Shown here: piece by piece, positions 1 to 64,000 of the stretch
Position numbering within the stretch: position 1 is the stretch's first letter
Layout of the letters: every line of letters begins with the position of its first letter
Assembly: GCF_000315915.1 (NCBI RefSeq)
Contig: NC_020191.1
Coordinates: 496,001-560,000, forward strand
Origin: Henningerozyma blattae CBS 6284
Lineage: Eukaryota; Ascomycota; Saccharomycetes; Saccharomycetales; Saccharomycetaceae
Length of the DNA: 64,000 nucleotides
Direction of reading: 5' to 3'
The notes under the pieces: generated by a model
The model's database searches: none
Told to the model about the DNA's origin: nothing
The model's input: the letters and a program-made list of their open reading frames with translations, nothing else
Translations under genes and position numbers: made by a program

Positions 1-832
1 TTTTATTGTTAATTGTAGAAGCGTTACTAATTAAAGAATTGGATTGAGAGGATTCTTTATTTGAAAAAGAATTTGTCTTGGAATTGATTTTCGATTTAAG
101 TTTCCCCTTTATAATGGTACCATTTGATTTAATTGAATAAGTTTGATCTTTTTTCGAACTTGAAGTTGAATCAGTAGTTACATCCAAATTATCAGATAAA
201 GCTTTTAAAGTTTGTGGGTCTATAACTTTTGGTTTTGTTCTTAAAGTTGTTGGAGAAGGAGAAGTGATTGTATTGGAAGTAGAACTAGTCACACTTGTGA
301 ATAGGGATCCATTGGGAGTAGATTTCAATGGGGTAGCAGTTAAAGATGGAGATCCGACAAAAGATGAATAATTATATTCCAAGTCATCTTCAATGGAGGA
401 GGCAGAATAGGCCTTTGTAGCTGCAGCAGAAGATGAAGAGGGTCTTCTCATTCTTTTGGGGATAGAATCTACAAAGTTTGAAGAATCGGTGGCACTGCCA
501 TTACCACTACCACCAAGTAATTTCTTGTAGGTATCTACATTTGATTGCGGTGGTGCAATATGATCTTTGTGGGCTTTTTGAGCAGCCACATCTGAAGCCA
601 ATTTAGGGTTTGATAGACCTTTACTTAATTTTGAAGTGGGGGATTGGAAGGCACCGGTTTTCAATTTAGCTCTGTATAGGGCTTCTGCACTTAGAGGTTC
701 GCCAGATTCTTGATATACGGATAATTTTTTTTTAGTTTTCATTGTGGGAGGTGTAATGTCTTTAGTGTTGTTATTATTATTTTTTTGTGAAACCAAAGAA
801 TAGTTCTTTGATGTAGAGGAGGAAGAAGACAT
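1..832 (-). CDS. EIS1: Eisosome protein Eis1/YKL050C family, N-terminal part (runs off left edge)
   Basis: An open frame on the minus strand starts with ATG at 832-830 and stays open to base 1, giving about 277 residues with no stop, so the C-terminus is outside the window. The N-terminus is Ser/Asn-rich. At about residues 38-65 it has a segment with the pattern VYQ-SGEPLS-EALYRAKLK-G-FQSP, which matches the conserved N-terminal motif of S. cerevisiae Eis1 (YMR031C) and its duplicate YKL050C. Eis1 is a cytoplasmic-face component of eisosomes, plasma-membrane furrows that organise the MCC domain; this is family knowledge. The divergent neighbour is HOF1, as in S. cerevisiae YMR031C-YMR032W, which favours EIS1 over YKL050C. 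The rest of the visible part is low-complexity Ser/Thr/Asn and uninformative. Confidence 0.85.
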   Translation of the reverse strand, partial: MSSSSSTSKNYSLVSQKNNNNNTKDITPPTMKTKKKLSVYQESGEPLSAEALYRAKLKTGAFQSPTSKLSKGLSNPKLASDVAAQKAHKDHIAPPQSNVDTYKKLLGGSGNGSATDSSNFVDSIPKRMRRPSSSSAAATKAYSASSIEDDLEYNYSSFVGSPSLTATPLKSTPNGSLFTSVTSSTSNTITSPSPTTLRTKPKVIDPQTLKALSDNLDVTTDSTSSSKKDQTYSIKSNGTIIKGKLKSKINSKTNSFSNKESSQSNSLISNASTINNK

Positions 833-53065: not shown

Positions 53066-56000
53066 ATGACAGATATCACAAATAATAAAATATATGAAAA
53101 TGCAAAGAAATTCTTGGAACCTATTGAAAATGTCTATTCAGGATCGAATGAAAGTATCCAGGAAGCTGCGTTATTGGGTGAATTATTAAAATTATTATCT
53201 GATTTGCCAGCAGATTTCCATTTGTTTTGTGATCCAATATTTGAGCCTATTTCAATTTTTTGTTTAACAATATTTTCATTTAATGAACAAGAAACAGTTA
53301 ATTGGTTAAAAACTAAATTCAATCCGACTTTATCGTCATGTAATAATTGTGTTTTAAAATTTATAAGAGGTAAATGTAGAATGCTACAACATTTTGCCAT
53401 ACGAAGACATGTTCCCCATGAACATGTTTCAAAATTTAATGACATTGTATGCTCATGGAGATCTGAAGCTTTGATGCCAGTTCTAACAAGCATTGCCGTA
53501 AATGGTACAAGAATAGAAATTACTAAAAATGTGGAAACAGCATTATTTGAATGTTTATGCAATCCACACGTTCTAAGATTAAATTCAAAATTAAAGTCTG
53601 CTTTTAATGCAATTTTTAAATATTTTTATGTTTCAAAGCTACCATTATTAGATTTTGACCATCCGGATTCAATCAATACTTTTGTAGCTGGTGTAATATA
53701 CTGCTTATGTGAAGGTACTGAGGAAGAAATTTTATGGGGTAGAAGTTTTGCAAAACGACTTTTATCTAAACAAGTGACCTTCAATTCAAAAACAATAACC
53801 TCTGATATTTTAGAAGAATTAAACATGCATTTTCTATTTTTACAAAACCCTTCAAATTGGAATGATGTAGTGATCTCTTTATTTTGGTCCAAATTAATTC
53901 CAATCTTTGCATTATTTGAAAAAGATGTATTTTCTGAGTATTTTGAAATCCCCAAAAACAAGATATCTTTAGAAAAGACACTCAAATTCCCAATTGAATC
54001 AATATTCAAATTATGGTACAACCATTTAAGTAGACCAAGTCGTGATAAACCAATTGAGTTTCTCCTAAGAGCACTTAATCTATTTTTAGATAAATGGAAT
54101 TCAGAATTTTGGAAGAAATTAGAACCATATACTTTTCATAATTTATTAGATATTATTTTTGATAAGGCAATCTTTGCAACAAAGCTAATACGAATTCAAA
54201 ATAACCCAATTCCTGACGATGACATTACCACAATGCTTTCTCATATGGGTTCAATTACAGATTTGGTTTCTTGGACATTGCCATTTTACAGCTCACTAAC
54301 TTCTTCTAAAAGAATTCAAATGGTTAAAAAGGTTTCAATGTCATTTTTAAAAATTATGGTCAATTTTAAGGATTTATCATCAATTTCAAAGGCATGTTTA
54401 ATTAATTCTTCAACTGCATTACTAAGGGCAGTCTTGTCTGTAAAAGAAGAAGAACGTTTATTATTATACCAGAAAGATAGCTTCGAAACCGTTCTTTATA
54501 CCAAAACTGATTCACGTATTCTTTTAAATAATCCTCTTGTTCAAGATACTTTGCTACGGTCTATTTCTAAACCACTCGAATTATATCCAGGCTTAGGTGA
54601 ATCTGCCACATCTGTATCAACTTCTGCAATGATGGTATTAACGAAAGCAATCAACTTCGATATTCTTCTTTTGTGTGAGTTTACTTATAAAATTTATAAG
54701 AATAAACCCATAGGAAGTGTATCATTTAATAAAACCTTAATTGAAAATCTTTCCCAAAGATTGGATCTATGCTCATTCCACGATGGACCTCTCTTGGCCA
54801 AGCAATTGTTAACGTCCCTAAGAAATATAAATGGTCTTTTAATTGTTCCTTCAAAGACAAAAGAGGCTAGTACAAATAATGAATATGTTGCTCAATTTTT
54901 ATCATTCTCAACAAACTTAATTGAAAAATTTGGTGATGTCCTACCTCATGAATTAAAGAAAATTTTAAATGATGAACATGCGGCACAAGGTTTTTGGTCT
55001 TGTATATTTTCTGCCAACACAGATGTATATCAGACAACCACAAATATTTTATATGATACATTTGATGTTCAAGGTAGACTGGAAGGTATTCAAGCAATTT
55101 TAACTTTAAATTTAGACGTTCAATTACAGGCAATTAATAGCGTGCTTTCACAATTAATAAAATGTGAATTCTATGAACCATGTCCAAGAGCAATTAATAT
55201 TTTGAAAGATATTATTGGATCATTTTTAGATCCTATATCGGGTATCTTTTCTAATTATGACACTCTGAAAAATGTATCTACTGAGTCTACACTAGTACAA
55301 TTTTGGCAATTAATATGGTCCTTTTTAGATATGATATACCGTAGTACATTAACTTGGGCCACCCAATATGAATACTCTGAACTTGAAAACTTCACAAAAG
55401 ATACACTAGATTTGAGTCGTTTATTGATTGATTCATTTAGAGAATATTCTGATATTCTAAAAGATCTTAACGCAGATTTATTTAAGTGGGTTTTTATCGC
55501 TTTTAAAAATATGCTGTATTGGCTAAGATTAAGCGACGAGGCTCTTTTAGAATCATGTGTAAGGTTAATCGTAAATACATCTGATATTGCTGTTGAAAAA
55601 CATATTAAATTTAATGACGAAGTTGTAGAGATGATGGCAAAATATGGTTCCAAAGCCAAACGCTTTTCAAATAGACTTACAGATCAACAAACAGAGGAAA
55701 TTCTTACAAAATCTAGACTATTCAATAAGCAAGTTACAGATGATATTGTCCATGAGAGTGAAGTGTATCATAAAGAAAAAGCAAAAGCTAAAGAAGTATC
55801 AGTAACTCTTGCAAATAAGACATCGTTACCTCAACAACATGAATCTAGGGCTGATATTTTACAGCGCAAGGCCACATCATCTTCTATCATGGGTCGCCCT
55901 AAGGCTACACAATCTAGAATTACGTCATTTGGAACTCTGCAACCTTCAAGTAGCATGACTTTGTCCAGATCAACCACAGTAAAACCTTTATCAAAAATGG

Positions 56001-59000
56001 AACTTGCTCGTAAACAACTGATGTCAAAAAGAGTTATACATCCAGCCAGTACTACCGTTTTCCACACAAAACCTCAAACACATAAACTTGATGAAAGTAG
56101 TAGTGAGGAAAGTGATGGAGATATAGAATCTGCGAGAGAACTATTTGCAACCGCTAAGTCAAAAACGAAAACTATTGAAACTGTTGACATGACCGGCAAA
56201 ATAATACATAAACAAAATGCTGTTGATAGAGCCAAGCAGGAACAAGAATTTATGAGAAGAAGGCTGAATATCGATCTAAATCCATTATATGAATCAATCT
56301 TGCAATGGGAATTTACTAAATCTGATGATTATCCTGATACTATTAATGCACAGTCATTAAAACCTGTCAAGGATAAATTTTCTTCCGTAGTAGACTATCA
56401 AAATACCATGCGTCCCCTTTTACTATTAGAGTGCTGGCAAGGGTTATGCAACACTCGTGATAAAGAGGATTTTAGACCATTTAGCATAATCGTTGGGAAT
56501 AGAACCGCAGTATCCGATTTTTACGAAGTTTATGCAAGTATTCCAAAACAAATGATTCAGGAGAGTTCAATTTCGGAATCTGATTTAATTGTTTTAGCTC
56601 ATTTTCCAAATTTATATCCTAATCAAAAACTAACTAGTGATGATTTTAAGCATACGCCTGATACGTGCCTAGCTAAAATTAAATCTATGAAGAATGCAAA
56701 AGGTGAAAGAGTTGATATCACATTAAGAGTTCATAGAAATCATAGATTCTCTAAATTTTTAAGTCTAAGGACAGAAATCCACGCAATGAAAGTGATGCAA
56801 ATGACAACTGTAGAAAGAGAATACACAACATTGGAGGGTCTAGAGTATTATGATCTTGTTAACCAAATTCTTGAAGCAAACCCTACACCACACGTAGAAG
56901 CCTCCCATGGCGAAATTGAGAGGGTTAAAGCAAATTATAAATTGAATACTTCACAAGCAGAAGCAATTGTAAACACTGTTTCCAACCCAGGATTTTCTTT
57001 AATCCAAGGTCCTCCTGGTACCGGTAAAACAAAAACTATTCTAGGTATCATAGGATATTTCTTATCTACATCTAAAATGGTTCCCAGCAATGTCATACGC
57101 GCTCCAGAAGGCGTAACTAACTCAGAAAGCAGCAAAGATAAATTATTGAAGAAACAAAAAATACTTATCTGTGCCCCAAGTAATGCTGCTGTGGATGAAG
57201 TTGTGTTGAGATTAAAAAGTGGTATATATGATAAAGATGGGAAACATTTTATTCCAAACCTAGTGCGTGTTGGTAGATCAGATGCTGTCAATGCAGCTAT
57301 TAAAGATGTAACTTTAGAGGAATTGGTTGACAAAAGATTGGCAAAGAAAAACTATGAATTCTCTAATAATCCAGAACTCAATAAGACTTTTAACGAACAA
57401 GTTGCGAAAAGACGGCAATTACGTGAAAAGTTAGATAGAGAAAATGGCTCTGTAGAAAGTAAATTATCTACTGAAGATATTGCCAATTTACAAATCGAGA
57501 TCAGACAACTAAGTAAAAATATTAATGAGCTAGGTAAACAGAGAGACGAGATAAGAGAACGTAACTCAATTAATTATAGAAATAGAGATCTGGATAGAAG
57601 AAATACTCAGGCTAGTATTTTGGCTGGTAGTGACATTATATGCTCTACCTTGTCAGGGTCTGCGCATGATGTTTTAGCATCTCTAGGTGTGCAGTTCGAT
57701 ACGGTCATTATTGATGAAGCTTGTCAATGTACTGAGTTATCTTCGATAATCCCTCTACGTTATGGTGGGAAACGTTGCATAATGGTTGGTGATCCAAATC
57801 AATTGCCACCTACTGTACTTTCAGGTGCTGCGTCAGATTTTAACTATAACCAATCCTTATTTGTTAGAATGGAGAAAAACACAAAGCCATATTTATTAAA
57901 TGTTCAGTATCGTATGCATCCACTAATTAGTAGATTTCCTTCGAAGGAATTCTACAAACGCGAACTTAAAGATGGCCCTGATATGGAAAAGATTACAGCT
58001 CGACCTTGGCATTCCTTGGAGGCCTTAGGTCCATACAAATTTTTTGATATTGTTAGTGGAAAACAAGAACAAAATATTAAGACTATGTCTTATGTCAATC
58101 CTGAAGAAGTCAGGGTTGCAATAGAGTTGATTGATTATCTATTAAGACATTTTGAGAAGAAGGTTGATTTTACTGGTAAAATTGGTGTTATATCACCCTA
58201 CAGAGAGCAGATGATGAAAATGAAGAGAGATTTTAATTCTTATTTTGGTGGGGTTATATCGACATATGTAGACTTTAATACTATCGATGGGTTTCAAGGT
58301 CAAGAAAAAGAAATTATATTATTATCATGTGTTCGTGCAGATGCTTCTAAAACAGGCGTCGGTTTTTTGAAAGATTTTCGTAGAATGAATGTTGCACTAA
58401 CCAGAGCTAAATCAAGTATGTGGATTCTAGGTCATCATAAGTCGCTTTATAAAAATAAATTATGGAAGCATTTGATAGAAGATGCTCATAAACGTAATGC
58501 CCTAACTAGCGCTTGTTCTGGCTTTTTAAATATAAATAATGCTCAAGCACAGGCTATTTTGGATAGGCATAAGAACTCACATTCTTATTTGTCCAATGGA
58601 TCAACTTCAACTAAGGATATAAGCTATCATAAAAGAAAATCCGATGATATGTTCCCTGAGCCAAAGAAATTTGCTAAATCTGAGAATAATGAGAAAATCG
58701 ATCGAAGAGAAAGTAAAGACTCAGGAGTCACAAAAGAAGCTGTAGAAAAGAAAGAAAAGAAAGAAAGAAAAGAAAAGAGAGATAAAAAGAAAAGAAGGAT
58801 AAAAGAAAAGAAGGATAAAAAAGACAAACGAAATAAAAAGGAGAAGAAGGAAAAAGCTAAAGATGGTCCATCTTCGACTACTGGAAATTCATCAAACACA
58901 GTAGCCAGTGGTACCAAAAAGAAATCTTCAATTTTTGGGGCTCCCTCTTTAGTTACTGAAATTATCGATACTAAAACTCGTGAAGACTCTAACAATGGTA

Positions 59001-59773
59001 CTGTACCCAAAAAACACAAAAAAATTGATACCCGGCATGTTTCATTCTCAGATTCTGTGAAATATATACCTAATTCAGGGGAAGAAGATAAAGACGAATA
59101 CATTCCTTCTGCGGCTACTGAACAATTTAAAAATGTTGAAAGGATCAGATCTCCTCCCTTGCCTACTGAACTTTCTAATACTGAAACTATCCCAAACATT
59201 GATGAAGAAGATGATTATACGCCTGTCATAAAGCAACAACCTACAAATAAGCCTAGTAATAACTTAACTCGTACTAATAGCAATGGCTCCAGATATAGTG
59301 GTTCCCATTTTATGGGTTCCGATAGCAATATCACCGGACCTATTACAAGTAGGTACAATCCTTGTGTACCTCAAATTGATTCAAACCCTGTGAGATATGG
59401 GAATGTTAGAAATAACGATGGCAGATACGTCTATGACAATACATCATATGGAATGAGACCGCCTATGAAACAGTTTGTAAAGCCTACAAATTCTGGTAGT
59501 TTCCCCCCATCAAATAATAATGGCGGGATGTCTTCTGATTATTACAAACGTAATGCTAATGATTTTAGCAGTACCACCTCATCTACTTATCCTAGCAATT
59601 ATTCTCCTGTAGGAAATAACAATAATCCTTCCTCATATGACTACTCGAAACCAGGACCTCCACAACATTTATATCCTCCCAATAATTATCCCAATAATTC
59701 CAAGGGTAGTAGGAGCAGAGGGTCTAATTATTCTCCATTTATACCAAAAAGAAGGAGGCCACACGGTCCTTAA
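53066..59773 (+). CDS. SEN1: Superfamily 1 RNA/DNA helicase Sen1
   Basis: A 2235-residue protein (S. cerevisiae 2231). The N-terminal 950 residues are all-helical, as in Sen1. The UPF1-type helicase core contains GPPGTGKTKT near residue 1315, CAPSNAAVDEVV, DEACQCTE near 1550, QYRMHP, the IDGFQGQE motif and MNVALTRAK near 1775. A lysine-rich stretch at about 1893-1932 is the nuclear localisation region; the last 200 residues are Asn/Ser/Pro-rich and end in RRRPHGP. Sen1 acts with Nrd1 and Nab3 to terminate short noncoding RNA transcription and removes R-loops. The helicase core is intact by eye. ATG23 is convergent 137 bases downstream, as in S. cerevisiae. Confidence 0.97.
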   Translation: MTDITNNKIYENAKKFLEPIENVYSGSNESIQEAALLGELLKLLSDLPADFHLFCDPIFEPISIFCLTIFSFNEQETVNWLKTKFNPTLSSCNNCVLKFIRGKCRMLQHFAIRRHVPHEHVSKFNDIVCSWRSEALMPVLTSIAVNGTRIEITKNVETALFECLCNPHVLRLNSKLKSAFNAIFKYFYVSKLPLLDFDHPDSINTFVAGVIYCLCEGTEEEILWGRSFAKRLLSKQVTFNSKTITSDILEELNMHFLFLQNPSNWNDVVISLFWSKLIPIFALFEKDVFSEYFEIPKNKISLEKTLKFPIESIFKLWYNHLSRPSRDKPIEFLLRALNLFLDKWNSEFWKKLEPYTFHNLLDIIFDKAIFATKLIRIQNNPIPDDDITTMLSHMGSITDLVSWTLPFYSSLTSSKRIQMVKKVSMSFLKIMVNFKDLSSISKACLINSSTALLRAVLSVKEEERLLLYQKDSFETVLYTKTDSRILLNNPLVQDTLLRSISKPLELYPGLGESATSVSTSAMMVLTKAINFDILLLCEFTYKIYKNKPIGSVSFNKTLIENLSQRLDLCSFHDGPLLAKQLLTSLRNINGLLIVPSKTKEASTNNEYVAQFLSFSTNLIEKFGDVLPHELKKILNDEHAAQGFWSCIFSANTDVYQTTTNILYDTFDVQGRLEGIQAILTLNLDVQLQAINSVLSQLIKCEFYEPCPRAINILKDIIGSFLDPISGIFSNYDTLKNVSTESTLVQFWQLIWSFLDMIYRSTLTWATQYEYSELENFTKDTLDLSRLLIDSFREYSDILKDLNADLFKWVFIAFKNMLYWLRLSDEALLESCVRLIVNTSDIAVEKHIKFNDEVVEMMAKYGSKAKRFSNRLTDQQTEEILTKSRLFNKQVTDDIVHESEVYHKEKAKAKEVSVTLANKTSLPQQHESRADILQRKATSSSIMGRPKATQSRITSFGTLQPSSSMTLSRSTTVKPLSKMELARKQLMSKRVIHPASTTVFHTKPQTHKLDESSSEESDGDIESARELFATAKSKTKTIETVDMTGKIIHKQNAVDRAKQEQEFMRRRLNIDLNPLYESILQWEFTKSDDYPDTINAQSLKPVKDKFSSVVDYQNTMRPLLLLECWQGLCNTRDKEDFRPFSIIVGNRTAVSDFYEVYASIPKQMIQESSISESDLIVLAHFPNLYPNQKLTSDDFKHTPDTCLAKIKSMKNAKGERVDITLRVHRNHRFSKFLSLRTEIHAMKVMQMTTVEREYTTLEGLEYYDLVNQILEANPTPHVEASHGEIERVKANYKLNTSQAEAIVNTVSNPGFSLIQGPPGTGKTKTILGIIGYFLSTSKMVPSNVIRAPEGVTNSESSKDKLLKKQKILICAPSNAAVDEVVLRLKSGIYDKDGKHFIPNLVRVGRSDAVNAAIKDVTLEELVDKRLAKKNYEFSNNPELNKTFNEQVAKRRQLREKLDRENGSVESKLSTEDIANLQIEIRQLSKNINELGKQRDEIRERNSINYRNRDLDRRNTQASILAGSDIICSTLSGSAHDVLASLGVQFDTVIIDEACQCTELSSIIPLRYGGKRCIMVGDPNQLPPTVLSGAASDFNYNQSLFVRMEKNTKPYLLNVQYRMHPLISRFPSKEFYKRELKDGPDMEKITARPWHSLEALGPYKFFDIVSGKQEQNIKTMSYVNPEEVRVAIELIDYLLRHFEKKVDFTGKIGVISPYREQMMKMKRDFNSYFGGVISTYVDFNTIDGFQGQEKEIILLSCVRADASKTGVGFLKDFRRMNVALTRAKSSMWILGHHKSLYKNKLWKHLIEDAHKRNALTSACSGFLNINNAQAQAILDRHKNSHSYLSNGSTSTKDISYHKRKSDDMFPEPKKFAKSENNEKIDRRESKDSGVTKEAVEKKEKKERKEKRDKKKRRIKEKKDKKDKRNKKEKKEKAKDGPSSTTGNSSNTVASGTKKKSSIFGAPSLVTEIIDTKTREDSNNGTVPKKHKKIDTRHVSFSDSVKYIPNSGEEDKDEYIPSAATEQFKNVERIRSPPLPTELSNTETIPNIDEEDDYTPVIKQQPTNKPSNNLTRTNSNGSRYSGSHFMGSDSNITGPITSRYNPCVPQIDSNPVRYGNVRNNDGRYVYDNTSYGMRPPMKQFVKPTNSGSFPPSNNNGGMSSDYYKRNANDFSSTTSSTYPSNYSPVGNNNNPSSYDYSKPGPPQHLYPPNNYPNNSKGSRSRGSNYSPFIPKRRRPHGP

Positions 59774-59910: not shown

Positions 59911-61317
59911 TTAATCATTTTTTGTATTCTTTTCAGCTGATTTAAAAGAATCCAACTCAAAAGCGTCATTAATTTTTGAAGAAAATATGTTCTGGTCAGA
60001 CAAGCCTGCAATTGTTTGTGATTTATTAACTAGTAGGAATGGAGGGCTTGAATTTCTTTTAGATTCTGATGATGATAGTTTAAGTGGAGAGGAAGTTGAA
60101 AATTGTAATTCTTCATTGGATAATACTTCGCATGCTCTCTGTAGGGTGGATTTTTCTTCAATAATTAATTTTTGGATGAGCTTGTCTGTATTTTGTCGTA
60201 GTAATATATGGAGATCTTCAATAGTGATGCTAATTGTAGAAATTATCTTAGAAATCCTCTCAGAATCTTGCAAATCCGCTTCCCGTAGTTTCCTTCGTAA
60301 ATCATTTTCAAGAGCAGTTACATACTCGATACATTGTAGCCAGGAATCTCTGTTATCTACATACATTTTTGCATTTTCTTTATTTTCCACAAGTTGAGAT
60401 TGAAAATATTCCAGTTTTACGTCGATAAATTCTATACTATGTGTATTCAATTGCGTCATATCTTCCAAAGATAAATTTGATATCGATGAAGAACCCGTTG
60501 TAAAATTGACAAGTTTTTGTGTTAATGAATTTGAATGTTCTTGTGGAATTGTAAACCCTATTGATTCCAAAATTTGTACCTTCTTTCTATAGATTTTCTC
60601 CACTTTTTTGTACAATTGATCAGTTTTATTTCTAATTTTCGAACTCTGTATTCTTAATTCCTTTTTAATAAAGGCGTAATCTTTCTGATAATTGGCTAAT
60701 AGCTGTTGTAATGATGCTATATCGCTTTGAGCATTTTCTTGAGCTTTGTTAAGTAATGTAATGGAACTTAGTAATTGGTGTGACTGTGCATTGGAGGAGC
60801 TATCATTCAATCCTGATACAATTATTTCGTTGTTTAAATCATCCTTATCTATTAATTCGTCTTTTTCAGACGATGAAGTTGGTGTCGCAGAGCTTAGAGT
60901 TGTGTTATTAGCCCCAACTAAGCTAATATATTGGTTTAAATATCCACGGTAAGTTGAAGGAACCTCTATCGCCGTTGGATCAGAATTATTAACATTTTCG
61001 AAAGATGTTATATCAATTTTATCGTTTTCCCACGATGAAATTTTTTCTACTAATTTCTTTTCACTTTTTATTAAGCTACTTAAGTACTGTCTAGATTCCT
61101 TCAATAATTTAATCATTTCTCGAACTTCACCATCGTGGGTGATCATCATATTATTAAGGGTACATAGGTCATTAAAACATATTAAAATATCCTTCCTGCA
61201 TTTATCTAAATGTAATGAGGATTCTTCTTCTGTTAATGCCTTTCTATGCAGTTCAATAAATCCTTGTAGCAAATTGAATATTTCAGCTTTTTGTATTTGT
61301 AATTCTTCTAAATTCAT
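59911..61317 (-). CDS. ATG23: Autophagy coiled-coil protein Atg23
   Basis: Start set at ATG 61315-61317, giving 468 residues; the frame extends upstream only to a GTG. The protein is largely helical with heptad-like stretches (residues about 1-110, 195-260 and 300-390) and a Ser-rich C-terminus. The opening MNLEELQ...KAEIFNLLQ...HRKAL resembles Atg23 (453 residues in S. cerevisiae). Atg23 works with Atg9 and Atg27 in supplying Atg9 vesicles for the Cvt pathway and autophagy. Sequence evidence alone is modest; the position between SEN1 and the calcineurin gene (YLR430W, YLR431C, YLR433C) is the stronger support. Confidence 0.75.
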   Translation of the reverse strand: MNLEELQIQKAEIFNLLQGFIELHRKALTEEESSLHLDKCRKDILICFNDLCTLNNMMITHDGEVREMIKLLKESRQYLSSLIKSEKKLVEKISSWENDKIDITSFENVNNSDPTAIEVPSTYRGYLNQYISLVGANNTTLSSATPTSSSEKDELIDKDDLNNEIIVSGLNDSSSNAQSHQLLSSITLLNKAQENAQSDIASLQQLLANYQKDYAFIKKELRIQSSKIRNKTDQLYKKVEKIYRKKVQILESIGFTIPQEHSNSLTQKLVNFTTGSSSISNLSLEDMTQLNTHSIEFIDVKLEYFQSQLVENKENAKMYVDNRDSWLQCIEYVTALENDLRRKLREADLQDSERISKIISTISITIEDLHILLRQNTDKLIQKLIIEEKSTLQRACEVLSNEELQFSTSSPLKLSSSESKRNSSPPFLLVNKSQTIAGLSDQNIFSSKINDAFELDSFKSAEKNTKND

Positions 61318-61804
61318 GATGACTATACGCACTGTTATTAAATTCTAATATAAATAGGCGGATGATATAGATCATTACAAACTGAAAAATATTATGCTCG
61401 CTTTTATTCAAAATAATTAATTTAAACATGGAGACTCCTAATTTTATCTAAATATTAAATTCTGGAGTTTTATAAAAGCTACCTCTAAAAAGGCGGATGG
61501 AACTCCGAAAATTATCATTCCTCACGGAAATATTTCTATTTTAATATACTTTACAGAAAGCACAAGTTGATTGTTAATCGTTCGTTACAAAGCAGAATTA
61601 AATATTATTCAAAAAATAGTAGAAAATAATGCATTTAAGCTATTAGAATATATAAAATTAAATAATATCCCTATAAAGAAATATTATATATTGTTAGAGC
61701 TTAAAAATCGGTTGTCTAAAAGAATATAAATAAAATAGATTATTGAGTCTTTATTAAGTGTCTAATAATTTTGATAGTAAATGTAATATAGTTATGTAAT
61801 TTAA
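61318..61804. other. ATG23-calcineurin spacer lacking IMD3
   Basis: About 490 AT-rich bases. In S. cerevisiae an IMP dehydrogenase gene (IMD3) lies here between ATG23 and CNA1; no trace of it is visible. Confidence 0.6.
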
Positions 61805-64000
61805 TTACATCCTACCATTAATAAAATTTGAATTTACGTTAAGATTTACACCAGGCGATAATTGTCTAAATCTACTTGCAGCTACAACATTTTGGCTCTT
61901 CTTATGTTGAATTGGTGTATTAAATTTTTGATTAGTATGATTTATTAATCTTGAATTATTTGACATAGGGTACGCAGAGCCAACATCAATATTATTGACT
62001 GGCAAAAATTCATAAGACTTAGAGGTGGACCCAGTAAAATGAGAATGTCTTCTTGGTTTATTTGACTGTTGATATCTTGCATTCGAGATATTTGAATTAG
62101 GGATCATATTTGAACTCCTATTACCAACCCCACTTGTGTAACTCATATTTGAAATTTTACTGGTATTCATATTTGAATACATACCCGTATTTTCATTCCA
62201 ATTATTATTACCATTGTATTGATAATTAGAATTGAATGAACCATTCGGTTCAATGTTGTAGCTGTTATTACTTTGATAAAATGGATTCCTAGAATTATTA
62301 TTGTAACTATTATTGTAAGTATTGTAATTACTGTTCATGTTGTTGAAAGTGTTGCTATTCATATTGTTATTGATGGAGTTAATATTGAGATTATCGTTTA
62401 TATTGTTGATCATATTGTTGTTCACAAGATTATCAAAATTGTTATTATCAAGATTATTAAACGAGTTACTAACACGCATATTGTTATACATGTTTCCATT
62501 CATATTATTGGAGTTCATGTTTCTCATGTTATACCTAGGATTTCTTAAATTGTTATTCATTATTAAAGTTCTGCTAGTTTTTTTAATTGGAGAATCATTC
62601 ATATATTCGAACGTATTAGAGTTGTAACAGGGAGTGTTATTGGGGGGCATACTAATATTAAAATTATTATTGTTCACTTCATTATTTTCAACTTCGATTT
62701 CAGATTCAGGGGAATTATAAACCATTTCATTTGGATCCTTGTTTATGTATTCAGGTTCCATGTAGTATGTATTTCGAGTATTATACGGTGGAGATACATT
62801 AGAAATGTTACTAGTTTCATATGAAAGAGAGTCTGTATTATTTATGTTATTGATTGAATTTTCATTAAATGGATTTTTATTATTGTTATAATTTTGATTT
62901 GAGATATGGGCATTATTAGTACTAGTAATACATGTGGTACTATAACTGTTAACATTGTTGTAGTTATTCATATTAGTAAATGTATTTGGGCTACATTTAC
63001 TTAAGGCATGATAAGAGTGTCGTTGTGGAAATGATGCAGGTCTTGAACTATTATTATTATTTGAATTGCCATCTGGGGATCCATTTGGTGAGTTAGTTCT
63101 ATTAGAATTTGAATTTATTTTTACTAGAGAAGAATTCTGAGTAAATGCAGGATTATTGTTTTTTTTATCAATACCAAAGGATAACTCTGAAGTCGGGTTA
63201 GCTTTTATGTTATTTCTATTGAATTTGGAACTTGTAATTGAATTAGAATATAAATCCGAAGTTGAATTAAAATTAGTTTTCCCCGTATTATGTAATTTCG
63301 AATAAACGATCTTTTTATCTACATCTTTAAAAGTGGGATAAATTGTTTGTGAGTTCGATAACTTGTATGAATTTACTGAATAAGGGTTAACTAAATCAGG
63401 TGCAGACTGAGTGGATGAGTGATTCATATATGTGAATGTTTCAGGATCGTCAGATAAATATTTAATAGGCTTATTTGTTTCTACTTGTTGCTTTTTAGGA
63501 GATGATGTTGAAGGTAAGTTTGAGGTTGAACTTGAATAATGTGAATATCTTTTCAAATTTCTTTTTAACTTTGATGGAGAAACCTTAACATCATCATCAT
63601 TACAAATATTTAAAATTGACACTAACAGATCATTAATTTTCTCACCTACATATGGTAAAGACCATGAAAAAACATCCATAAAATCAGGTAATAGATAAGG
63701 ATGAGGAGATTTTTCAAACTGATTAATATTTAGAGTGTCATTTTCGATCTTTAATATAGCGGCTTTATTATCAAAAGAATCCAAATAATTTGGGGCACTA
63801 AAAATCGTTAGCATACTTGGGAAATCATATTCTTTTGTATTCTTATACATTCTATAGCCTAGATCTTGCGCTTCATGTGCTCTAATGATTGATAATAAAT
63901 TATTTTTCTTCAAGAACTCACATACAGCTTTATAAGTGAAGCAAACTGAACAACCTCTTGATTCATTTGGAACGAAAAAAATATCTCCATCAGCAGTAAT
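61805..64000 (-). CDS. CNA1/CMP2: Calcineurin A catalytic subunit with atypical Asn-rich C-terminal tail (5' end beyond window)
   Basis: The minus-strand frame runs in from base 64000 and ends with a stop at 61805, showing 731 residues of the C-terminal part. The first 100 visible residues are the end of the PP2B catalytic domain: [17 protein letters not shown], the active-site region [17 protein letters not shown] and [18 protein letters not shown]. Next, at about residues 100-137, is the calcineurin-B-binding helix [18 protein letters not shown]...[11 protein letters not shown]. After that, the usual calmodulin-binding (RNKI...SRMFSVLREE) and autoinhibitory (FEKARKEDLINEKLPP) segments are absent. 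In their place is a tail of about 590 residues dominated by Asn, Ser and Tyr. The Trp of SPHPYW is Leu here. The position next to ATG23 matches YLR433C. It dephosphorylates targets such as Crz1 in calcium signalling (family knowledge). Confidence 0.9.

What the first reader, a model, noticed from the sequence alone, without database searches (positions are those of the whole stretch)
61805..64000. Calcineurin A whose calmodulin-binding and autoinhibitory region is replaced by a ~590-residue Asn-rich tail
Seen: the catalytic end and the calcineurin-B-binding helix are well kept, then the protein becomes Asn/Ser-rich until the stop, with no canonical calmodulin-binding helix or autoinhibitory segment. 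Known: in yeast and animals these two segments hold the enzyme off until Ca2+/calmodulin binds, and removing them gives a constitutively active enzyme. Inference: this copy may be calmodulin-independent, or controlled by its low-complexity (possibly condensate- or prion-forming) tail. Only a weak basic patch ([10 protein letters not shown], about 35 residues from the end) recalls the calmodulin site, and SPHPYW is changed to SPHPYL near the drug and substrate docking groove. A second, normal calcineurin A elsewhere in the genome would make this a specialised duplicate.
Basis: partly seen in the sequence, partly recalled or inferred. Interest (0 to 1): 0.75.

Follow-up and report, generated by a model that had tools for sequence, protein, structure and literature searches.

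The report
Duplicate calcineurin without its regulatory switch
A yeast carries, beside a normal copy of the calcium-controlled phosphatase calcineurin, a fast-changing second copy that keeps the enzyme core but has swapped its calmodulin switch for a long asparagine-rich disordered tail, so it may work without the usual calmodulin control.

Summary
The window is from Henningerozyma (Tetrapisispora) blattae and the gene runs past its edge: an intact 1132-codon calcineurin A. All nine metal and catalytic residues and the calcineurin-B helix are kept. After residue 541 come 591 residues (25% Asn) without calmodulin helix or autoinhibitory domain in any frame. The genome has one further calcineurin A, on another chromosome, with a complete regulatory region. 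Gene order (yeast order recalled) makes them whole-genome-duplication ohnologs: the window copy in the CNA1 place, the normal one in the CMP2 place. The window copy also has three enlarged loops in its catalytic part, Arg332 changed to Asn in the substrate-docking strand (Arg in 258 of 258 relatives) and a terminal branch over four times the next longest. Of 262 other family proteins in hand, only a human construct also lacks both segments. Best reading: a specialised phosphatase, not gated by calmodulin, with weakened PxIxIT docking, placed or regulated by its disordered tail. The anatomy is firm; the mechanism is inferred. Calcineurins without these segments are described in trypanosomatids; my searches found none described in fungi.

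The parts
61805..64000 (-). 3' two thirds of the calcineurin A gene (residues 402-1132 and stop); the 5' third (residues 1-401) lies right of the window at C7:560001-561203, locus L009:4001-5203
63977..64000 (-). last 8 residues of a 66-residue acidic loop (residues 344-409; family median 9 residues) in the catalytic part; the rest is outside the window
63683..63976 (-). C-terminal part of the catalytic domain (residues 410-507), with catalytic Arg416 (human 254) and His443 (human 281) kept
63722..63724 (-). Asn494 in place of human Arg332 (PxIxIT docking strand); Arg in 258 of 258 relatives
63692..63694 (-). Leu504 in place of human Trp342 (SPHPYW to SPHPYL); Trp in 257 of 258 relatives
63650..63652 (-). 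Tyr518 in place of human Phe356 (LxVP/drug pocket); Phe in 258 of 258 relatives
63581..63682 (-). calcineurin-B-binding helix region (residues 508-541), conserved in sequence; modelled with low confidence (block means 42-70)
61808..63580 (-). 591-residue Asn/Ser-rich tail (residues 542-1132) in place of the calmodulin helix and autoinhibitory domain; modelled mostly at pLDDT under 50
63524..63577 (-). basic patch [18 protein letters not shown] right after the B-binding helix; its first 20-residue window (543-562) has net charge +5, tied highest in the tail, and the largest hydrophobic moment of those tied
62105..62641 (-). most Asn/Gln-rich stretch of the tail (residues 855-1033; up to 40 N+Q in 80)
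61859..61888 (-).
53066..59773 (+). SEN1 helicase, synteny marker
59911..61332 (-). ATG23, synteny marker (matches PDB 9zm0, Autophagy-related protein 23, E 7e-25)

Best explanation
The gene is the CNA1-position ohnolog of calcineurin A in Henningerozyma blattae. It has become a specialised phosphatase. The core is predicted to fold, has every metal and catalytic residue and, through the kept helix, probably pairs with the genome's single calcineurin B (inferred). Because the calmodulin helix and autoinhibitory domain are gone, calmodulin should not gate it; any Ca2+ control would come through calcineurin B alone, or from tail-based inhibition or localisation (inferred). Arg332-to-Asn and neighbouring changes in the PxIxIT strand, and Phe356-to-Tyr in the LxVP pocket, suggest changed substrate choice (inferred). 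The 591-residue disordered tail and the enlarged loops would decide where it acts and on what (inferred). Ordinary Ca2+/calmodulin signalling is left to the CMP2-position copy (inferred).
Against: No expression, binding or activity data. dS is near saturation and averages over both copies, so recent relaxation on this copy is not excluded. The groove enrichment of changes (7 of 21 against 20 of 151, p 0.027) was tested on a stretch chosen after seeing it. Short docking and kinase motifs in the tail occur at chance rates. No orthologue was seen that would show the tail to be conserved. The B-binding helix is modelled with low confidence (block means 42-70, residues 501-540), perhaps because calcineurin B is absent from the model. 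Asn330 and Ile331 of the PxIxIT strand and Trp352, Tyr341, Leu343 and Pro344 of the LxVP pocket are kept, so docking need not be lost.
Confidence: 0.5

Rival explanations
1. A decaying duplicate: relaxed selection let the regulatory end erode into low-complexity sequence; the protein has little function of its own and will be lost.
For: Very long branch; 27 of 172 conserved core columns changed; Asn-rich sequence occurs elsewhere in this AT-rich genome (4 of 54 ORFs in hand have 30 or more N+Q in 80; two of the four are overlapping frames of this gene); partial loss of the gate is also seen in three unnamed proteins of the family.
Against: 1132 codons without a stop; every metal and catalytic residue kept; dN/dS about 0.18, though dS is near saturation; catalytic core predicted to fold.
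Confidence: 0.25
2. The gate was replaced, not lost: the tail carries an unrelated autoinhibitor or calmodulin site, for example the basic patch at residues 543-560, so the enzyme is still Ca2+-controlled.
For: The patch has charge and hydrophobic moment like the real site (+5, 1.04 against +5, 0.83), and the second model draws a helix at 543-553, at low confidence (block means 51 and 38); human CNA-beta1 replaced its AID by a different inhibitory motif, LAVP (PMC8523714, passages).
Confidence: 0.2
3. A competitor: it binds the single calcineurin B or substrates and tempers the normal copy, acting as a modulator more than as an enzyme.
For: One calcineurin-B gene for two A subunits; B-binding helix conserved in sequence.
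Against: Full set of catalytic residues kept, which a pure competitor would not need.
Confidence: 0.04
4. Frameshift or assembly error hiding a normal regulatory end.
For: None found.
Against: No regulatory segment in any frame of 10 kb; the catalytic part itself is diverged and has enlarged loops, which an error after residue 541 cannot explain.
Confidence: 0.01

Closest known systems
Yeast calcineurin A pair CNA1/CMP2 (also called CNA2)
   Same: Same two loci by gene order (S. cerevisiae order recalled), same catalytic domain and B-binding helix; the C5 copy has the complete architecture.
   Different: PMC6506691 (passages) gives the S. cerevisiae proteins as 553 and 604 residues and describes calcineurin A as carrying a calmodulin-binding domain and a C-terminal AID; this copy has neither, is 1132 aa and has three enlarged loops.
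Trypanosomatid CaNA1/CaNA2 (T. cruzi) and Leishmania CaNA2
   Same: Calcineurin A reported in silico with only catalytic and B-binding domains (PMC8470620, passages; its labels for calmodulin site and AID look exchanged against usual use, as I recall that use).
   Different: No long Asn-rich tail is mentioned in the passages read; those are protists, so the loss is presumably independent.
Vertebrate CNA-beta1 splice form
   Same: A natural calcineurin whose AID is replaced by a divergent tail that controls place and activity (PMC8523714, abstract and passages).
   Different: Splice form, keeps the calmodulin site, 40-residue hydrophobic palmitoylated tail with LAVP; here a separate gene, no calmodulin site, 591-residue polar tail, no LxVP.
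Unnamed family proteins P0125/P0126 and P0171
   Same: Degenerate calmodulin helix and shortened AID (P0125, P0126) or no AID match (P0171); P0125/P0126 also have a long loop (51 and 42 residues) at the place of the third enlarged loop.
   Different: All docking-groove residues checked are canonical, no long tail, organisms not named.

Membership tests
Calcineurin A (PP2B catalytic subunit) | PPP metal and catalytic residues (human D90, H92, D118, R122, N150, H151, H199, R254, H281) | tested here: met
   D163, H165, D192, R196, N224, H225, H304, R416, H443 all in invariant columns of the 79- and 146-row alignments
Calcineurin A (PP2B catalytic subunit) | Closest by sequence and fold to calcineurin among PPP phosphatases | tested here: met
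Calcineurin A (PP2B catalytic subunit) | Calcineurin-B-binding helix | tested here: met
   Residues 508-541 align without gaps to solved and yeast calcineurins; binding itself not testable here; model confidence low there
Calcineurin A (PP2B catalytic subunit) | Calmodulin-binding helix | tested here: not met
   controls positive
Calcineurin A (PP2B catalytic subunit) | C-terminal autoinhibitory domain | tested here: not met
   controls positive
Calcineurin A (PP2B catalytic subunit) | PxIxIT docking strand with N330-I331-R332 | tested here: not met
   N and I kept, R332 is Asn; R in 258 of 258 relatives. Whether docking itself is lost is not tested.
Calcineurin A (PP2B catalytic subunit) | LxVP pocket (W352, F356, Y341, L343, P344) | tested here: inconclusive
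   four of five kept, F356 is Tyr; residue roles from PMC3582496 passages
Calcineurin A (PP2B catalytic subunit) | Ca2+/calmodulin-stimulated phosphatase activity | not testable with these tools
   needs protein
CNA1 (YLR433C) position ohnolog | Gene order SEN1, ATG23, CNA1, TSR2, CAR2 | tested here: met
   the aminotransferase is class III, taken as CAR2; S. cerevisiae order recalled, not fetched
CNA1 (YLR433C) position ohnolog | Groups with CNA1 in a tree | tested here: inconclusive
   bootstrap 54; p-AU rejects none of five placements at 0.05, though the RELL and ELW measures exclude a sister grouping with the C5 copy alone
Prion-like / low-complexity proteins | 30 or more N+Q in 80 residues (threshold recalled) | tested here: met
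   40 in 80; 96 windows reach 30; aggregation not testable

The most novel reading that the evidence does not exclude
A natural fungal calcineurin that has left calmodulin control altogether after whole-genome duplication, with its PxIxIT docking strand rewritten, and that is now addressed to a private set of substrates by a 591-residue prion-like Asn tail, possibly through condensates. It would be a calcineurin that senses Ca2+ only through calcineurin B or not at all.
Probability: 0.3. Interest if true: 0.8.

Novelty: new variant of a known kind. Interest (0 to 1): 0.62.

Why it matters
A 2021 paper (PMC8523714, passage) calls the calmodulin/AID activation mechanism conserved in all calcineurin forms of animals and fungi, with one splice form as the only known exception. 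This gene would be a second exception, as a separate gene in a yeast of the S. cerevisiae family, where deletion and replacement tests are simple. It offers a natural experiment on what calcineurin B alone can do, how much of substrate choice lies in Arg332, and how a tightly gated enzyme survives losing its gate.

Tried and rejected
Frameshift or misassembly: rejected for this assembly. Calmodulin-helix remnant: the family alignments placed the calmodulin columns at three different places of the tail (about residue 665, 611-626, about 636), and the profile finds none, so no remnant is claimed. Microsatellite origin of the tail: one two-copy 24-bp repeat only. Autoinhibitory LxVP or PxIxIT in the tail: none, or chance level. 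Tree placement as a recent copy of the C5 gene: not excluded by the AU test (p-AU 0.08; 33 sequences, fast trees, 2000 resamplings, which the program warns is few), excluded by RELL and ELW weights; gene order is the main argument against it. A long-tailed orthologue elsewhere: none in the 120 rows listed of 1762, nor in the 120 listed of 7948; only those rows could be seen, candidates were capped and limited by length. Human numbers printed for the C-terminal half are shifted by 230, because the human construct P0122 repeats a segment; its residue table for human 254 and beyond failed for the same reason, so those residues rest. A bacterial promoter scan has no bearing on a yeast gene. Papers: searches turned up no description of this gene or of a fungal calcineurin A without both segments; the library lacks most subscription journals. 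Papers seen: passages only of PMC6506691, PMC6728138, PMC8523714, PMC3582496, PMC5653234 and PMC8470620 (an earlier look at PMC3582496, found none of its terms); all others as search listings.

Full report
What is there. The window is C7:496001-560000 of a 14.04 Mb, 10-contig genome. The normal calcineurin A of this genome is listed publicly as TBLA_0E04600 of Henningerozyma blattae CBS 6284, which names the species; the public contig listed for it is 1,324,051 bases and C5 here 1,316,927, so the assembly may differ. A look-up of Tetrapisispora blattae returns Henningerozyma blattae. The finding's frame continues past the window edge. The whole gene is one ATG-started, uninterrupted frame of 1132 codons (L009:1805-5203, minus strand).

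What is missing. After residue 541 come 591 residues, 25% Asn and 15% Ser. Six regulatory segments (the C5 copy's and five relatives') find nothing in any frame of 10 kb (best E 0.16), while the C5 locus as control gives 4e-41 to 6e-118, self match included. Profiles built from 253 and 254 relatives give no match in the tail and 48 and 84 bits in the normal copy. Across the 263 proteins in hand, the calmodulin profile matches 258 and the AID profile 260 at E below 1e-3. Only this protein and P0122, a human construct with a repeated segment, match neither; P0125, P0126 and P0199 fail the calmodulin profile alone and P0171 the AID profile alone. Two cautions: the profiles include most of these sequences, and the proteins in hand are only the best-scoring rows of three searches. 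The tail finds no PDB chain at E 0.1; the normal copy's segment finds six, including the yeast calmodulin-CNA1 peptide fusion 2lhi.

What else has changed. In an alignment of 260 of the 263 proteins (three dropped for length), with this protein compared with 258 others (P0122 also left out), residues 1-541 cover 172 columns conserved in 97% or more; 27 of them differ here. Changes include human Arg332 to Asn (258 of 258 others Arg), Phe356 to Tyr (258 of 258 Phe), Trp342 to Leu (257 of 258 Trp), Tyr324 to Ile (253 Tyr), Met329 to Leu (255 Met) and Asn335 to Glu (253 Asn). Human numbers come from P0122, corrected by 230 for the C-terminal half (see Tried and rejected). Seven of 21 conserved columns in residues 475-504 differ against 20 of 151 elsewhere (p 0.027), a stretch picked after the fact. 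Three loops in the catalytic part are enlarged: 29 residues (128-156) and 32 residues (246-277) where every other row has at most 1, and 66 residues (344-409) where the median is 9 and a few others also have long loops, up to 100. The terminal branch is 1.84 substitutions per site; the next longest is 0.42.

The second copy and the origin. A search with the phosphatase family gave 19 places, and a search with the normal copy gave 16 matches: its own gene, four pieces of this gene (36-61% identical), a 69-residue piece on C6 at 93%, and ten others at 37-41% that belong to other phosphatases. So two calcineurin A genes were found. The C6 piece is a lone 195-bp stretch 98% identical in DNA to the C5 gene. 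This gene is flanked by SEN1, ATG23, TSR2 and a class-III aminotransferase, presumably CAR2. That is the S. cerevisiae order around CNA1 (YLR430W-YLR438W, recalled). The C5 copy lies beside an IMP dehydrogenase, as CMP2 lies beside IMD4 (recalled). The sequence tree cannot place the fast copy firmly (bootstrap 54; topology tests), so the ohnolog reading rests on gene order.

Selection. Against the other copy, dN is 0.36 and dS 2.0 over 381 codons. dS is near saturation and both branches are averaged, so this says only that the core was long constrained. The tail is not a simple repeat, has Asn runs of at most 4, and mixes AAT and AAC (110 and 38), which does not look like a fresh microsatellite. 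Asn-rich stretches occur elsewhere in this genome, so the tail's composition alone is not special.

Mechanism. Shown: core, residues, absence of the two segments, enlarged loops, second normal copy, single calcineurin-B gene. Inferred: it pairs with that B subunit; calmodulin does not gate it; PxIxIT docking is weakened (the human N330A/I331A/R332A triple mutant is defective, PMC6728138; the passage does not test the single change); LxVP docking is at least partly kept (Trp352 and three further pocket residues kept, Phe356 changed; pocket from PMC3582496); the disordered tail sets place or partners. The nearest parallels are trypanosomatid calcineurins reported with only the catalytic and B-binding domains (PMC8470620) and the vertebrate CNA-beta1 splice form (PMC8523714). 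The latter paper states that the canonical mechanism holds for all calcineurin forms of animals and fungi apart from that splice form. Within that statement this gene is an exception.

Limits. No orthologue of this copy was seen, so the age of the change is unknown. Sister-species genomes could not be searched here. No data on expression or activity were found.

Noticed in passing
L017:1468-1908 (C2) and L015:1468-1905 (C8): The genome has two calmodulin genes, 101 of 147 residues identical. The best PDB matches of both are chains named calmodulin, closer for the C2 copy. S. cerevisiae has one (recalled). A second, diverged calmodulin beside a calcineurin that lost its calmodulin site may be worth a joint look.
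   Followed up: partly
L026:4104-4298 (C6:526103-526297): A 195-bp fragment 98% identical to the normal calcineurin A gene lies alone between two long frames that I did not identify, within a 79-codon frame; it looks like a recent fragment duplication.
   Followed up: partly
proteins P0125, P0126, P0171 (unnamed sources): Other calcineurins of the family have a degenerate calmodulin helix and short AID, or no AID match, with normal docking residues, which suggests the gate erodes more than once.
   Followed up: partly
protein P0199 (listed as Candida parapsilosis): AID profile matches but the calmodulin profile does not, although other C. parapsilosis entries in hand match both; perhaps a gene-model difference.
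   Followed up: no
protein P0212: The only other of 258 relatives with Leu at human Trp342; it matches both regulatory profiles.
   Followed up: no
L009:7550-7996, minus strand: A 148-codon frame between TSR2 and the aminotransferase, with no Pfam match; by position it may be DIF1 (recalled order).
   Followed up: no
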